Origin: Vibrio marisflavi CECT 7928 | GTDB lineage: Bacteria; Pseudomonadota; Gammaproteobacteria; Enterobacterales; Vibrionaceae | Direction of reading: 5' to 3' | NCBI RefSeq assembly: GCF_921294215.1 | Contig: NZ_CAKLDM010000002.1 | Coordinates: 1,798,001 to 1,862,000, forward strand | DNA length: 64,000 bases | Part shown: in pieces, positions 389 through 52,264 of the stretch | How positions within the stretch are numbered: position 1 is the stretch's first letter | Layout: each line of letters opens with the position of its first letter | The notes under the pieces: generated by a model | What the model saw: only the letters and a program-made list of their open reading frames with translations | Database searches by the model: none | Told to the model about the DNA's origin: nothing | Translations under genes and position numbers: made by a program

Positions 389-499
389 AAGGGTGGAAGC
401 CCCAGCCACATCCCGGCACACAAGTCACACGCTGCGGCTGCTTCCTTCCGGACCTGACCGAGTTCACGAGCTATTGTTGCGGGAGGACCAGGGCCTCCA
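389..499 (-). ncRNA. ffs: signal recognition particle RNA (4.5S)
   Basis: This is the small bacterial SRP RNA, partner of Ffh in co-translational targeting of membrane proteins. Read on the minus strand it contains the near-invariant apical core GGTCCGGAAGGAAGCAGC and, further on, GTGTGCCGGGATGTGGCTGG, both diagnostic of 4.5S RNA. The two ends (GGAGGCCC near 499 and CCACCC near 391) can close the terminal stem. Length is about 110 nt, matching the roughly 114-nt enterobacterial form. The 3' end is followed by TTTTT. The ends are estimated from pairing. A plus-strand frame over the same DNA is only a shadow. Confidence 0.95.
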
Positions 500-14795: not shown

Positions 14796-16922
14796 TTAGT
14801 AAAAGGTTTCGCCCTTGCCTGCTCTAGTCAACAGACCATCACACGGTGCAAAAACATCACCATATTTCTGTGCATGATCATTCATTAACTCAATAAGCGT
14901 TTTCAAACCTAGCTGATCCATATACTTGAAAGGGCCTCCTAAGAAAGGTGGGAAACCAATGCCAAAGATAGCACCAATATCTCCATCCCTCGCACTGCTG
15001 ATGATGCCTTCATCCAAACAACGTACTGCTTCATTGAGCATCGGTAGTAGGCAACGTAGCGCAATTTCCTCCTCGGAAAGCTTAGATTCTGGCTTAATGG
15101 AAAGCAGCTTATAGACTGACTTATCTACCTTTTTCTTCTTGCCTTTGTACTGATAAAACCCTTTACCACTTTTACGTCCTTTTCTGCCATCATTCAACAA
15201 AGTGTCAAACACTTCTGGCCCTCGAAAACGAACACCAAGCTCATTGACCAAAATCGGAGTAATTTTCGCACCGATATCAATACCAACTTCGTCTAACAGA
15301 GTAATAGGCCCGACAGGGAAGCCTTGGTTCAGTAGAGCTGAGTCAAGCCTTTCAATTGGCTCTCCCGCCATTAGAGCGTAAGCAGCCTGATTCATGTAAG
15401 GAGCGAGGATCCTATTCACGTAAAAGCCTGCTTTATCTTTTACCACTATTGGCGTTTTTCCTTGCTTACGAGCAAACTCCACCGTTGTTGCTATGGTTTG
15501 CGGTGATGTCCCTTCGTGAGGTATCACTTCTACCAATGGCATTTTCTCGACCGGACTAAAGTAATGCAGTCCAACCACATTTTCAGGTCTTTTTGCTCCA
15601 TCTGCTATTTGCTTGATTGGCAAAGATGATGTGTTGGTAGCGAAAATCGTCTGTTCATTCCCGTGTTCTTCGATATCGCTGATCATTTGTTGTTTGAGCG
15701 ACAAATCTTCAAAAACTGCTTCTACAACAATGTCATTGTTCTTAAAGCTAGTGAAGTCTGTTCCGCCAGAGAGCATTAGCATATTCTTCTGCAATTGAGC
15801 TTTGGACAAAATTCTACGCTTACGCTGCTTTTCAAACAGTTTGTAGTTGTAAGAAAGGGCATTGAGAATGCCATCGTTAGACACATCTTTGATTCTCACA
15901 GGCACATTAGCTTTAGCAACACTTACATGGCTAATTCCAGCTCCCATCAGTCCACCACCTAAGACGCCAGCTTTCTGTACCGTTTTAGGTTCAGCATCAG
16001 CCCCTGTTTCTTTTTTCATTTCAGTTGTAGCAAAGAATATTGAACGTAATGCCTTTGACTCAGAGGTCATTACCAGTTCGCCAAACCGTTTCGCCTCTAA
16101 CTGAAAACCTTCTGATATCCCTTGCTCAAACCCAGTTCGTATTACTTCGAGAATAGCTGGAACTGCAGGGTAATTACCCCTTGTCTTTTGCTGGCTCTTC
16201 TTGGCCGCCTGTTCAAAAACAAGTTTTCGCCCAAGGTTGGTATTGGTTAGAACATTTTCCTTTAGATTGGTTTTCTTTGCTTGCCCACGCTTTCTCTTCG
16301 ACTTTTCAATAAAACTTTTGGCGGCTTCCAATAAAATCGTGTCAGGCACACAAGCATCAACCATACCTAGCTTTTTGGCTTTTTTAGCTCTAACTTGTTT
16401 GCCTGTAAGAATCAGATCTAAAGAAGGAAGCAAACCAATAAGCCTTGGCAAACGCTGAGTCCCACCCGAACCTGGAAGCAGGCCAAGCTGAACCTCAGGT
16501 AGACCTAAGCGTGTTTTATCACTATCACTACACACTCGATAGTCACATGCTAAAGCTAGCTCCATTCCTCCACCTAAACAGGGACCATGAATTGCAGCAA
16601 CAACCGGATAAGGTAAGTCAGATAAGCGTTGAAACAGCTCCTGCCCTTGTTTAGCCAACTCTGTTGCTTCGCTAGCACTCTTGCAACTATCGAGCATGCG
16701 GACATCTGCACCGGCCACAAAATTATCTGGTTTGGTAGAATGGACAATCAAGCCTTTCAAAACCGAAGCACTTTCGTCAAGCTGTTCAAATACTTGCTGC
16801 ATCTCTTGAGCAAACTCAGCTTGTAAAGTGTTCATCTTCTCGCCAGGGACATCAATAGCAAGCCAAGCATAATTGCTTTCGTCGATTGTTAGGTTAAATG
16901 CTTTTTCTGTTTTGCTACTCAT
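14796..16922 (-). CDS. fadJ: fatty acid oxidation complex alpha subunit FadJ
   Basis: FadJ carries enoyl-CoA hydratase and 3-hydroxyacyl-CoA dehydrogenase activities for (often anaerobic) beta-oxidation. Starting at [16 protein letters not shown] gives 708 aa. The N-terminal crotonase domain shows [20 protein letters not shown] and [20 protein letters not shown]. The dehydrogenase domain shows the NAD loop [14 protein letters not shown] and [17 protein letters not shown]. The start is fixed by a 4-bp ATGA overlap with the fadI stop; the longer frame to 16970 lies inside fadI. Gene pairing with fadI, rather than fadBA order, marks it as FadJ. Confidence 0.96.
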
Positions 16923-18229
16923 GAGTCCACCTCCAAAACCATTGCAGCCCCCAAGCCTCCAGCTGCACAAGCTGTATTAAGGGCAAGACCGCCACCTCTA
17001 CGTTTAAGCTCTCGAAGAGTTTGTGTAATCATGCGAGCCCCTGTCGCGGCGAACGGGTGACCATACGCAATCGAGCCACCCAGCACATTAAACTTATCCA
17101 TGTCTATCTCACCAATTGCTTTCGAGCGGCCAAGCTTATCATTAGCAAAAGATTGGCTGGCAAACATTTTTACGTTCGCTAAAGTTTGCGCAGCAAAGGC
17201 TTCATGCATATCAATTAAATCAAGATCGGATAATGCAATACCTGCTCTATCAAGCGCTATTGGTGTTGCATAGGAAGGCCCCATTAACATGTCTTGTTCT
17301 ACACCGATTGCTGAGAATGCATAAGAACGTATATAACCTAACGGCTCTAGGCCCAATTCTTTCGCTTTACCCTCTCTCATTACCATAACCGCCGCCGCAC
17401 CATCTGTTAACGGCGTACTATTTGCGGCCGTCACAGAGCCATATTGACGGTCAAATGCAGGACGCAGTTTTGCATAACCTTCGACTGTCGAGTCATAGCG
17501 AATGTTGTTATCCTTATCTAACCACTTCTTATAAGGCTCGGGAAAAGCAGTCATCACTTCATCAGAGATTTTGCCATTGTTCCAAGCCTCTGAAGCAAGT
17601 GAATGAGACCTGTGAGCCAGAGCATCTTGTTCAAGACGAGAAATGGCATGAGTTTTTGCCATCTGCTCTGCGGTTTGGCCCATAGACAGGCCTGTAGAGT
17701 ATTCCGCAACTGCTGGAGGAACAGGGAGTAAATCCTTAAAAGACAGTGTTTTCAGAATACTTAGTTTTTGCGCTATCGTCTTGGATTTACTTAATGCAAG
17801 TAGGCCTGCTGCTAATTTTTTTGAAACACCAATTGGCAATACTGAGGAAGAGTCAGCACCGCCCGCAATACCAATATCCGCACTCCCCGCCATGATGCTT
17901 TCTGCGACATTCACTACAGACTGAAAGCTAGTCGCACATGCGCGAGTCACACTGTAAGCATCAGTTCCGACATCCATACCCGTGCCCAATACAATTTCTC
18001 GAGCAATATTTGGCGCTTCTGGCATTTGAATCACTTGCCCAAACACAACTTGATCGATTAGCTCTGGTTTTATATCGGTTCTGGCAAGTAACTCACTCAC
18101 CACCATTTTCCCAAGGTCCACTGCAGGAACTTTCTTAAACTCAGTACTTTGGCGTGCAAAAGGCGTTCTTAGCCCTGCGACAATCGCAACTCGCTCACCT
18201 GAACGCGTTTTTACTTCCAGCGTGCTCAT
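16919..18229 (-). CDS. fadI: 3-ketoacyl-CoA thiolase FadI
   Basis: The 436-aa thiolase cleaves 3-ketoacyl-CoA in beta-oxidation as partner of FadJ. The nucleophilic Cys lies in [13 protein letters not shown]. The conserved His is in [17 protein letters not shown] and the second Cys in [17 protein letters not shown]. Length matches E. coli FadI (436). A good ribosome site (AAGGAGATTTC) precedes the ATG. Upstream lie a FadR-type operator and a sigma-70-like promoter. Confidence 0.97.
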
Positions 18230-18245
18230 GAAATCTCCTTTTGTA

Positions 18246-18258
18246 GAGGTCTGACCTG
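18246..18258 (-). promoter_or_regulatory. FadR-type operator before fadIJ
   Basis: The core GGTCAGACC on the minus strand (reverse GGTCTGACC) matches the FadR consensus TGGTCNGACC in nine of ten positions. It lies just downstream of the inferred transcription start and 17-29 bp before the fadI ATG, where binding would block transcription unless long-chain acyl-CoA is present. Inferred by eye. Confidence 0.7.
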
Positions 18259-18262
18259 AAAC

Positions 18263-18290
18263 AGTGTAAATTATTTGTTAAACAATTCAA
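18263..18290 (-). promoter_or_regulatory. sigma-70-like promoter of fadIJ
   Basis: On the minus strand TTGAAT (18285-18290) and TACACT (18263-18268) are spaced by 16 bp, directly upstream of the FadR-type site. Confidence 0.55.
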
Positions 18291-18478
18291 ACATGCGTTT
18301 GAGTAAACGTGATATACCTATACCCAAGTGACCGCTAGAAGCATTTCAGTACAAAATGCAACCTGCCTATCTTTTTTACCTCCCCACATTTCTATTTCTG
18401 TTCATTCATAAATAAGCTTAATAAATATAAGTGAGCAAATAACGTGCAGTTCAATACCTTGCTAGGATGGAGATAAAA

Positions 18479-19009
18479 ATGAGTGAAGTGGTAATAAGAA
18501 AGCTAGAACAATTTGAACATTTTGGTTTTAAATGGATAGCAGCGGGTAGCGGTGGTTTTCATCACTGGGTTACAGATTCAAAAAGCGATGAACAGCCCGA
18601 ATTTATGACTTGCGGTCTGTGTTGCTTCCACTTGCCAATCGTAGCTGGTATCGAAACTGGAAGGCTGTCTAAAGATGAAGCGGGCGACTTAATTGTCAGT
18701 CAAATGAAAAGTGGTATCAGTGGTGGCGAACCTGATGCATGGTTTCAAGGCAAACTAACCAAGAAGGGCATGTTTTCTAGTACCCCAAGTAGAGGGGATA
18801 TTGTGTTCTTTTCGGCTAAAGAGGCGAAATACTTTGCTCATGTAGCAGTAGCGACTGGTAATGATGACGAAATCATTACTTTTGGCCACGACGCGCCATA
18901 TCTGCAAGGTGGTAAGCATACTTTATTGGTTGAAAGGAAAACGATTGACGATGTAAAAAGCCTCAACCGCCTTCTGACTGACGTGCACTATTGCTCGCCA
19001 TCTTGGTAA
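18479..19009 (+). CDS. small NlpC/P60-like (papain-fold) protein, uncharacterised
   Basis: The start at 18479 (MSEVVIRKL, 176 aa) is chosen because GGAGA lies six bases upstream; an ATG at 18467 would place that site inside the gene. Visible marks are a Cys cluster EFMTCGLCCF (C45, C48, C49) and, later, PSRGDIVFFSAKEAKYFAHVAVATG. That later strip is the usual second half of NlpC/P60-type cysteine peptidases or amidases, with H121 as likely catalytic His. No signal peptide or membrane segment is present, so it acts in the cytoplasm or is exported by another route. The substrate is unknown and an effector-like role cannot be excluded. Confidence 0.6.
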   Translation: MSEVVIRKLEQFEHFGFKWIAAGSGGFHHWVTDSKSDEQPEFMTCGLCCFHLPIVAGIETGRLSKDEAGDLIVSQMKSGISGGEPDAWFQGKLTKKGMFSSTPSRGDIVFFSAKEAKYFAHVAVATGNDDEIITFGHDAPYLQGGKHTLLVERKTIDDVKSLNRLLTDVHYCSPSW

Positions 19010-19050: not shown

Positions 19051-19085
19051 CCTATGTCATCTCATCCATTACTTTTCTTACGGAT

Positions 19086-19244
19086 AAAAAAAACCACACT
19101 AAACAGTGTGGTCGGAAATATAAAGCAATTAACTTACGCCAATTGAAAATAATCAGTTTCCTGATTAGGAGAAAGTAAAGTCAGCCTTCAAAAGGAAGTG
19201 TCATCTTGCTCAACGTGCCAGTCACAAGGACTGACCAGATGACA
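19086..19244 (-). ncRNA. candidate structured sRNA with FNR-like promoter
   Basis: No ORF fits here, but the minus strand shows a full transcription unit. Its 5' end folds into an 8-bp stem (19237-19244 with 19199-19206) enclosing a 7-bp hairpin (19229-19235 with 19217-19223). Next come a small CCTT-TTG-AAGG hairpin and a pyrimidine-rich single strand containing ACTTTACTTTCTCC. Then follow a perfect 7-bp hairpin with a GAAA loop (19150-19167) and a 7-bp terminator (19094-19111) with eight T. The length is about 159 nt. The C/U-rich segments could pair with ribosome sites. I cannot match it to a known sRNA; the architecture recalls FnrS. Confidence 0.7.
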
Positions 19245-19250
19245 GGACGT

Positions 19251-19291
19251 ACTATAACCCCTCCTTGTATTTACATTTTGAAGTAGATCAA
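19251..19291 (-). promoter_or_regulatory. FNR-like promoter of the sRNA candidate
   Basis: On the minus strand TTGATCTACTTCAA (19278-19291) differs from the FNR consensus TTGATNNNNATCAA at one position. Its centre is 28.5 bp before the -10 hexamer TATAGT (19251-19256), within one base of class II spacing. The predicted start is near 19244, at the foot of the first hairpin. Confidence 0.6.
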
Positions 19292-19485
19292 TTTTACGTT
19301 CGATTAAACTCGTTTTGGCTAGTCATATTTGTTTAGCATCAATTTATCGTTAGTTAAATAACTACGACTGATTGTCCTCGCAGCACAAATGGACACCTCA
19401 TTCGAACCAACTTTCAGGCTTGAGCTACGATAAATAGGTGGAATTGCGTAGTTTGCAGTCATCGACGAGCAAAGAGGAGGCTCAT

Positions 19486-20046
19486 GTGACATTTGGGAAA
19501 ATATTTGGAAATAAAAAACCAAATAGTCCGGTCAGCTCAAATATGGACAGACAAAGAAAATACGAAGCGCTTGTTCGCGCTTATCATAGGGATTTATTCC
19601 GTTATGCATTTTGGCTATGTAAAGACAAAAGCATTGCCGAAGATTTAGTGCAGGAGACCTGCCTAAGAGCATGGAAATCTCTTGATAGCTTACAGGACGA
19701 AAAGGCAGCGAAATCTTGGCTTATCACCATACTTAGGCGAGAAAACGCTCGGCGCTTTGAAAGAAAGCAATTTGACTTAGTAGACATTGACGACCACGGT
19801 AACGACGCAAAAGTCAGTGATGACCCACACCATCAATCTGAGTGGGTACAAGCTCAGATAATGAAATTGGATACGGATTATCGAGAACCACTGTTTTTGC
19901 AAGTTGTTGGTGGGTTCAGTGGCGAAGAGATCAGTGAGATACTCGAATTAAACAAGAATACAGTAATGACAAGGTTGTTCAGAGCACGTAATCAACTAAA
20001 GGAAATGCTGGATTCACGAGACAACAGAGGGCAGCAAAATGGATGA
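19486..20046 (+). CDS. ECF-type RNA polymerase sigma factor
   Basis: I choose GTG 19486 (186 aa, MTFGKIFGNKK) because GGAGG lies five bases upstream; the frame continues further upstream without a better site. Sigma region 2 is YHRDLFRYAFWLCKDKSIAEDLVQETCLRAWKSLDSL followed by AAKSWLITILRRENARRFER. Region 4 is LDTDYREPLFLQVVGGFSGEEISEILELNKNTVMTRLFRARNQL. There is no region 1.1 or 3, as expected for an ECF factor. The stop overlaps the next gene by 8 bp. That gene encodes a membrane-spanning DUF3379 protein that is probably its anti-sigma factor. Stimulus and regulon are unknown. Confidence 0.9.
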   Translation: MTFGKIFGNKKPNSPVSSNMDRQRKYEALVRAYHRDLFRYAFWLCKDKSIAEDLVQETCLRAWKSLDSLQDEKAAKSWLITILRRENARRFERKQFDLVDIDDHGNDAKVSDDPHHQSEWVQAQIMKLDTDYREPLFLQVVGGFSGEEISEILELNKNTVMTRLFRARNQLKEMLDSRDNRGQQNG

Positions 20047-52221: not shown

Positions 52222-52264
52222 TTGATTCCGATCAATCTTATCAAGCAAATATCGGCGGTATTTT
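52222..52264 (+). promoter_or_regulatory. FNR box and -10 before the carbamate kinase operon
   Basis: TTGATTCCGATCAA (52222-52235) is a perfect match to the FNR consensus TTGATNNNNATCAA. TATTTT (52259-52264) lies 30.5 bp from its centre, within one base of class II spacing. The predicted start is near 52270, about 34 bases before the kinase ATG. A small GTGAGATCAC palindrome (52207-52216) lies just upstream. Confidence 0.7.

What the first reader, a model, noticed from the sequence alone, without database searches (positions are those of the whole stretch)
19086..19291. Unannotated structured sRNA with an FNR-like class II promoter
The gap between the papain-fold gene and the ECF sigma gene holds a complete minus-strand unit without an ORF. 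It has an FNR-like box (one mismatch), TATAGT at class II spacing, and a start coinciding with an 8-bp/7-bp nested hairpin. A perfect 7-bp stem with a GNRA loop and a strong terminator follow. Pyrimidine-rich open stretches (CACTTCC, TTTCTCC) could pair with ribosome sites, as in the anaerobic sRNA FnrS, to which I see no overall alignment.
Basis: partly seen in the sequence, partly recalled or inferred. Interest (0 to 1): 0.8.

Follow-up and report, generated by a model that had tools for sequence, protein, structure and literature searches.

The report
FNR-controlled small RNA of Vibrionaceae
This stretch encodes a small regulatory RNA, already detected in the cholera bacterium as Vcr043 but with no reported oxygen control, and its conserved promoter suggests that the oxygen sensor FNR switches it on to adjust respiration when oxygen runs out.

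Summary
The minus strand carries an FNR-like box (19278-19291), TATAGT (19251-19256), a structured RNA (about 19243-19085) and a terminator. The gene is real. Of 117 loci fetched with a 21-nt core pattern alone, 116 carry the FNR-like box exactly 21 nt before a TATAnT hexamer; the miss is a cut contig. The helices show compensatory changes (15 of 27 pairs; 0 of 500 shuffles); a 25-nt core hardly changes. 'Unannotated' is true for Rfam, not for the literature: position, size and orientation identify it as the ortholog of V. cholerae Vcr043 (between VC1045 and VC1046, about 160 nt, Hfq-dependent, RNase E-processed; reported targets sdhC, grxA, vc0036, rpoS). The input is what is new here: the Vcr043 passages I read do not mention FNR, and my searches of the held library listed no such report. 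The core is predicted to pair with the sdhC start region. Best reading: an FnrS-type, FNR-activated, Hfq-dependent trans-acting sRNA that lowers aerobic respiration under anoxia. It is not shown to be in the FnrS family: RF01796 does not match it, and no genome of 295 in the order matched both models.

The parts
19278..19291 (-). FNR-like box TTGATCTACTTCAA, centred at -41.5 of the inferred start (class II position)
   Evidence: box at exactly 21 nt before TATA[G/T]T in 176 of 178 unique loci and before TATAnT in 116 of 117 loci fetched by the core alone
19251..19256 (-). -10 element TATAGT; on the other strand it is part of ACTATAAC, so a divergent start for the ECF gene may share it (inference)
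   Evidence: TATAGT in 157 and TATATT in 19 of 178 unique loci
19085..19243 (-). small RNA, about 159 nt, ortholog of V. cholerae Vcr043; start inferred
   Evidence: known transcript
19200..19243 (-). 5' nested hairpin: 19243-19237 with 19206-19200, and 19235-19229 with 19223-19217; rich in compensatory changes
   Evidence: helices 1 and 2 are 99.8% and 97.9% paired, 10 of 14 pairs with double changes
19169..19193 (-). nearly invariant 25-nt core UUUUGAAGGCUGACUUUACUUUCUC, presumed target-pairing region; a 5-bp hairpin inside it is predicted in some folds but never varies, so it cannot be tested
   Evidence: inner hairpin in the consensus and best fold, absent in the centroid
19150..19167 (-). 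7-bp stem with GAAA loop
   Evidence: helix 3 is 96.8% paired, but RNAalifold did not choose it
19084..19113 (-). intrinsic terminator: 9-pair stem and T run, likely Hfq-binding tail
19438..20046 (+). divergent ECF sigma factor gene (VC1045 counterpart), neighbour upstream of the sRNA promoter
   Evidence: divergent in 150 of 178 unique loci
16919..18229 (-). fadI (thiolase), same strand downstream; in most relatives probably the next gene after the sRNA
   Evidence: same strand in 170 of 178 unique loci, median about 220 bp after the terminator
18467..19009 (+).

Best explanation
An independent gene for an Hfq-dependent, trans-acting small RNA, the ortholog of V. cholerae Vcr043, under anaerobic activation by FNR. 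Proposed working: without oxygen, the [4Fe-4S] FNR dimer binds TTGATCTACTTCAA at -41.5 and, as a class II activator, recruits sigma-70 polymerase to TATAGT; a roughly 160-nt RNA is made and ends at its own terminator. The 5' nested hairpin and the GAAA hairpin frame a 25-30-nt core. With Hfq, this core pairs with ribosome-binding and start regions, foremost sdhC (succinate dehydrogenase), lowering aerobic TCA and respiratory functions; it also raises rpoS by pairing in its 5' UTR. Shown here: gene architecture, conservation, covariation, synteny, and a 4-Cys FNR encoded in the same genome. Reported by others in V. cholerae: the transcript, Hfq and RNase E dependence, and regulation of sdhC, grxA, vc0036 and rpoS. 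Inferred: FNR binding and activation, the sdhC pairing site, that sdhC is lowered, and the physiology.
For: FNR box plus spacing in 116 of 117 loci fetched by core pattern only and 176 of 178 unique loci in all. Box column conservation 0.956 against 0.525 in the spacer. The box goes with the sRNA, not with the ECF gene: 21 of the 28 loci without an ECF hit have at least 900 nt of upstream DNA, yet all but two of the 178 keep the box at its spacing. Covariation: 98.4% of cells paired, 85 double-change cells against 21.2 +/- 3.3 in shuffles and 9-18 when partners are slid. Diverged orthologs that the DNA search missed (6 of 6 genomes of genus g10, and one g4 genome) keep TTGATCTG[T/C]TTCAA and the 21-nt spacing to a -10-like hexamer although their cores differ. 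The own genome encodes FNR with Cys 16/20/23/29. Vcr043 lies between VC1045 and VC1046, divergent from VC1045, about 160 nt, as here (V. mimicus L137: ECF, sRNA of 160 nt, fadI). Three of its four validated RIL-seq targets have electron-transport roles, as expected of an oxygen-controlled RNA. sdhC pairing in the own genome -24.9 kcal/mol, matched by 18 of 1000 shuffled cores; 26 genomes with the RNA have median -24.2, three without it -17.3, -17.1 and -8.7.
Against: No expression data with and without oxygen or in an fnr mutant. Northern blots in V. cholerae showed Vcr043 at similar levels through growth in LB, so it is not off in ordinary culture. The box departs from the textbook 14-mer in nearly every locus at the same place (TTCAA for ATCAA). 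grxA, a validated target, shows no pairing above chance in my crude test (430 of 1000 shuffled cores as good), and sodA/sodB, FnrS targets (recalled), mostly lie near background. The sdhC contrast rests on three genomes, one of 1 Mb; two genomes with the RNA pair weakly too (G022 -19.0, G016 -18.6), and near the start codon G014, which lacks the RNA, pairs about as well as many of the rest (-16.4 against -17.7). Six Vibrio genomes with a 4-Cys FNR lack box and RNA (G014, G015, G041, G128, G131, G134), so it is not essential. A small hairpin predicted inside the core would hide part of it.
Confidence: 0.83

Rival explanations
1. The RNA is mainly the leader of the fadIJ operon: the FNR promoter drives read-through into fadI/fadJ (enzymes linked to anaerobic beta-oxidation in E. 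coli, recalled) and the short RNA is the terminated part.
For: fadI follows on the same strand in 170 of 178 unique loci, median about 220 bp after the terminator. A paper reports that 14 V. cholerae sRNAs, Vcr043 among them, might also serve as 5' UTRs.
Against: A strong terminator follows the RNA. The fadI examples printed show a FadR-like palindrome (GGTCAGACC) and a -10-like TTACAAT just before the start, so its own promoter is likely (motifs recalled). In this window an opposite-strand gene lies between, yet the RNA is intact. Two loci with over 1.5 kb downstream have no fadI (L009, L184) although the sRNA is there. Hfq-dependent stability and trans targets are reported for Vcr043.
Confidence: 0.08
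2. The box is used by another CRP-family protein (CRP itself) rather than FNR, so the RNA answers to cAMP and not to oxygen.
For: CRP and FNR sites are alike, and PF00325 finds two such proteins in the own genome.
Against: The half-sites are TTGA/TCAA, exact TTGA-N6-TCAA in 109 of 117 loci, the FNR type; CRP wants GTGA/TCAC (recalled). Most reported targets concern electron transport.
Confidence: 0.06
3. It is a true, strongly diverged ortholog of enterobacterial FnrS rather than an analog.
For: Same layout (FNR box, 5' hairpin, open stretch, terminator), shared ACUUCCUUUU and UUUUGAA; the diverged g10 orthologs carry UUCCUUUUUGAAU against UUCCUUUUUUGAAU in FnrS.
Against: The shared 10-mer is reached by 14 of 500 shuffles and the local alignment by 60 of 1000 for the window RNA, 19 of 1000 for g10. 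RF01796 gives no match over cut-off in 121 Vibrionaceae genomes; one sub-threshold hit in G090, a genome that has the Vcr043-type RNA. ECF orthologs sampled outside Vibrionaceae have no convincing FNR-box sRNA beside them.
Confidence: 0.12
4. No RNA gene: a chance array of motifs, or a short coding region.
For: FNR-like 14-mers with one mismatch are common by chance.
Against: Covariation, invariant core, fixed spacing and synteny; the short frame has no ATG in 46 of 178 loci.
Confidence: 0.01

Closest known systems
Vcr043 of Vibrio cholerae (between VC1045 and VC1046)
   Same: Position, orientation, size (about 160 nt), divergent sigma-factor neighbour. I take it to be the same gene. Papers seen as passages only: PMC8545128, PMC9732341, PMC7398697, PMC5089854, PMC7695739, PMC9438474.
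   Different: I did not see the Vcr043 sequence itself (V. cholerae is not among the 80 listed contig loci; V. mimicus and V. metoecus are). FNR control is not mentioned in the passages read.
FnrS (Rfam RF01796) of Enterobacteriaceae
   Same: FNR-like box upstream (TTGAGCGAAGTCAA in L298), 5' hairpin, ACUUCCUUUU motif, terminator, anaerobic role (FnrS biology recalled; Durand and Storz 2010 seen only as a reference-list entry).
   Different: No family-level match, different core, different locus (E. coli position recalled), sod genes not clear targets, and no genome of 295 in the order matching both models.
AniS of Neisseria (FNR-controlled, Hfq-dependent sRNA; name recalled)
   Same: The same kind of logic: Hfq-dependent sRNA under FNR control, made in oxygen limitation (a title in a reference list).
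   Different: Different lineage; sequence not compared here.

Membership tests
Vcr043 family | Gene between the sigma-factor gene VC1045 and VC1046, divergent from VC1045 | tested here: met
   that VC1046 is fadI follows from the V. mimicus gene order, not from a call on V. cholerae
Vcr043 family | RNA of about 160 nt with own promoter and terminator | tested here: met
   159 nt in the window, 160 nt in V. mimicus; both inferred from sequence
Vcr043 family | Sequence identity to the V. cholerae RNA itself | not tested
   V. cholerae sequence not seen; sister species V. mimicus and V. metoecus carry the gene
Vcr043 family | Hfq dependence and regulation of sdhC, grxA, vc0036, rpoS | not testable with these tools
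   reported for V. cholerae; predicted sdhC pairing here
FnrS (RF01796) | Match to the covariance model at the gathering score | tested here: not met
   none in the window; 0 of 121 family genomes over cut-off, one weak hit in G090
FnrS (RF01796) | FNR-type site upstream of a sigma-70 -10 at class II spacing | tested here: met
   met by the window gene
FnrS (RF01796) | Anaerobic, FNR-dependent expression | not testable with these tools
   needs RNA from cells
FnrS (RF01796) | Pairing with FnrS targets such as sodA/sodB (targets recalled) | tested here: inconclusive
   24 sod loci, mostly near the background energy, a few at -20 to -21

The most novel reading that the evidence does not exclude
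One symmetric promoter works as an oxygen switch: FNR at -41.5 activates the sRNA and, because the divergent ECF start appears to share the ACTATAAC/GTTATAGT element (published start distance 25 bp), the same bound FNR sits in the early ECF transcript and blocks the ECF sigma operon. The sRNA then represses sdhC and its own downstream neighbour fadI (start-region pairing median -22.4 kcal/mol in 32 fadI starts, at the 5.8th percentile of 584 other starts; 35 of 1000 shuffled cores as good for the window's fadI). Respiration, beta-oxidation and a sigma factor would thus be coupled to oxygen in one locus, filling the place of FnrS in Vibrionaceae. The ECF half cannot hold everywhere: 21 loci with at least 900 nt upstream show no ECF gene.
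Probability: 0.22. Interest if true: 0.7.

Novelty: new member of a known kind. Interest (0 to 1): 0.57.

Why it matters
Vcr043 gave high numbers of RIL-seq chimeras and was called uncharacterized. A family-wide FNR site gives it an input signal, fits its electron-transport targets, and makes the anaerobic sRNA arm of Vibrionaceae directly testable. Of 295 genomes sampled in the order, 19 match the model of this RNA and 26 the FnrS model (19 over its cut-off), with none in common (strict filters), which suggests separate solutions to the same need in two lineages. It has no Rfam family; alignments A1 and A2 could seed one.

Tried and rejected
Rfam at permissive E-values gave only sub-threshold matches (four, among them STnc480 20.2 bits and VqmR 14.6 bits), taken as chance. 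Short-ORF idea rejected. FnrS orthology by alignment: too weak. grxA pairing: no better than shuffled cores, although grxA is a reported target. sodA/sodB as targets: not supported. ECF start as target: median at the 27th percentile, not notable. Outside Vibrionaceae, ECF orthologs in the seven other families with a close hit show no convincing syntenic FNR-box sRNA; one (L357, family f6) has an 8-of-10 box 21 nt before TATTAT and was not pursued. The two g7 loci in Vibrionaceae have neither box nor core. Two g8 genomes (L345, L346) keep an FNR-like box with the same spacing to TATAGT but no recognisable core: unexplained. A first script for finding sdhC starts failed and was replaced. Target energies use simple duplex folding without accessibility, and background starts were chosen by a script, so they are rough. 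On checking, I corrected an earlier belief that loci lacking the ECF gene were mostly cut short: only 7 of 28 have less than 900 nt upstream; I lowered the novel case slightly for that.

Full report
What is in the sequence. On the minus strand between the 180-aa gene (18467-19009) and the ECF sigma gene (19438-20046) lie an FNR-like 14-mer (19291-19278), 21 nt, TATAGT (19256-19251), and a region ending in a 9-pair terminator with a T run at 19113-19084. The composite of box and -10 occurs once in the window; 0.03 is expected (pattern drawn from the site), whereas the box alone is common by chance. Folding the inferred 159-nt RNA gives z -3.8. Rfam has no family for it: the only window match over a gathering score is the signal recognition particle RNA at 397-493.

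Conservation. A DNA search found the region, whole or in part, in 56 of 61 genomes of the genus (own included) and 75 of 101 of the family, in 8 of 13 genera sampled. Of these 117, chosen without regard to the promoter, 116 have a box of at least 8 of 10 consensus positions exactly 21 nt before TATAnT (109 with 9 of 10); the miss, L189, is a cut contig. Over all 217 loci (178 unique) the figure is 176 of 178; the other miss, L091, has the box but a different -10. Column conservation over 79 rows is 0.956 in the box, 0.525 in the spacer, 0.981 in the -10, 0.998 in the core and about 0.5 on both outer sides. All these loci were found by similarity to the region or by the core, so the core figure is partly selection.

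Structure. On 58 aligned sequences chosen from the loci (A1) the four helices are 98.4% paired. Fifteen of 27 pairs have changes on both sides, and none of 500 shuffles reaches the observed value on any of five measures; slid partners give 23-52% pairing. RNAalifold independently finds the 5' helices and terminator, 14 of 28 pairs with compensatory changes; it does not choose the GAAA hairpin and places an invariant 5-bp hairpin inside the core, which the centroid of the single sequence leaves open. In longer relatives the inner 5' arm is extended while the outer stem and core stay (A2).

Which RNA it is. In V. mimicus (L137) the order is DUF3379-like gene, ECF, divergent 160-nt sRNA, fadI, fadJ (gene names by likeness to the window genes, fadJ by eye). 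fadI lies on the same strand downstream in 170 of 178 unique loci; of the other eight, six are cut short and two (L009, L184) have over 1.5 kb without it. The ECF gene is divergent in 150 of 178; of the other 28, seven have less than 900 nt upstream and 21 show no ECF hit in 900 nt or more, yet the box stays. The box therefore seems to belong to the sRNA. The V. cholerae sRNA Vcr043 lies between VC1045 (sigma factor) and VC1046, is about 160 nt, and is transcribed oppositely to VC1045 with starts 25 bp apart (PMC8545128, passages). I conclude that the window gene is its ortholog, though I did not see the V. cholerae sequence. Known about Vcr043: Hfq-dependent stability (as cited in PMC5089854), multiple RNase E-made intermediates (PMC7398697), rpoS activation about 3-fold on overexpression (PMC8545128), four validated targets of which grxA, vc0036 and sdhC are tied to electron transport, and the label 'uncharacterized' (PMC9732341). 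Six held papers contain the name; I read passages of all six, and none of those passages speaks of FNR control. In PMC8545128 the term 'fnr' does not occur. The searches listed no title or abstract start about an FNR-controlled Vibrio sRNA; several of these lists are capped. A 2025 V. cholerae paper says that many putative sRNAs respond to nitrate and that FNR controls sRNAs in other organisms (PMC11980369, passages). Most subscription papers are not held, and three that I tried by identifier were missing, so earlier priority cannot be excluded.

Input. The own genome encodes an FNR protein with the four N-terminal cysteines. Half-sites TTGA/TCAA are of FNR type (recalled). Diverged orthologs sharpen this: 6 of 6 g10 genomes, missed by the DNA search, keep TTGATCTGTTTCAA with the same spacing to TAAAGT or TACAGT and a core UUCCUUUUUGAAUGAUAUGACUUUCUG, and a g4 genome keeps TTGATCTGCTTCAA and TATAAT. 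Six Vibrio genomes without the RNA (G014, G015, G041, G128, G131, G134) keep a 4-Cys FNR and the ECF gene but have no box of 9 of 10 near it: it looks like a real loss.

Output. In the own genome the core pairs with the sdhC ribosome site and start codon at -24.9 kcal/mol (duplex); 18 of 1000 dinucleotide-shuffled cores do as well. In 26 genomes with the RNA the median is -24.2 (range -27.4 to -18.6); in three without it -17.3, -17.1, -8.7. Three lacking genomes are few, one is a 1-Mb genome, and the part near the start codon alone does not separate G014 from the rest. Background starts average about -15.5. fadI also pairs well (median -22.4 in 32 starts; 35 of 1000 shuffled cores for the window's fadI). 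grxA (430 of 1000) and most sod genes do not stand out. rpoS and vc0036 were not tested here.

Relation to FnrS. The RF01796 model finds nothing over cut-off in 121 family genomes; one weak hit (35 bits, cut-off 60) is in G090. In 295 genomes of the order it matches 26, of which 19 are over cut-off, those all from family f19, while my model R1 matches 19, all Vibrionaceae; no genome matches both (strict filters, weak matches can be lost). Ten identical bases (ACUUCCUUUU) are shared with FnrS, but 14 of 500 shuffles share as many and the local alignment is matched by 60 of 1000 shuffles (19 of 1000 for g10). It works like FnrS, as far as can be inferred; it is not shown to be a member.

Divergent promoter. 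The -10 reads GTTATAGT or GCTATAGT in most loci, so the opposite strand reads ACTATAAC or ACTATAGC, and the reported 25-bp start distance roughly fits two starts sharing one element. FNR at the box would then lie just inside the ECF transcript. This is inference only.

Verdict.

Noticed in passing
L345 and L346, upstream of the ECF gene (genus g8 genomes G088 and G067): FNR-like TTGATTTCCCTCAA, 21 nt, TATAGT and later a T run are kept, but the conserved core is not recognisable: perhaps an sRNA with a replaced pairing region.
   Followed up: partly
L344, L352-L356 (genus g10): Diverged orthologs missed by the DNA search (and by the covariance model in the four g10 genomes): same FNR box and spacing, core closer to FnrS (UUCCUUUUUGAAU), T run at the end.
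   Followed up: partly
G014, G015, G041, G128, G131, G134: Vibrio genomes (3.4-4.2 Mb) that lack the sRNA and its FNR box while keeping FNR and the ECF gene.
   Followed up: partly
window 18467-19009: 180-aa plus-strand gene without Pfam match, between sRNA and fadI in only two of 178 loci (L001, the window itself, and L002): perhaps a recent insertion.
   Followed up: no
window 18230-18279 and relatives: FadR-like palindrome (GGTCAGACC) just before fadI, and TTACAAT in relatives, suggesting its own FadR-controlled promoter (motif recalled; sequences).
   Followed up: no
window 52222-52235: Perfect 14-mer TTGATTCCGATCAA, the only exact FNR consensus match in the window.
   Followed up: no
L357 (family f6), upstream of the ECF ortholog: 8-of-10 FNR-like box 21 nt before TATTAT outside Vibrionaceae; may be chance.
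   Followed up: no
window 397-493: Bacterial small SRP RNA on the minus strand (Rfam RF00169, 73.7 bits).
   Followed up: no
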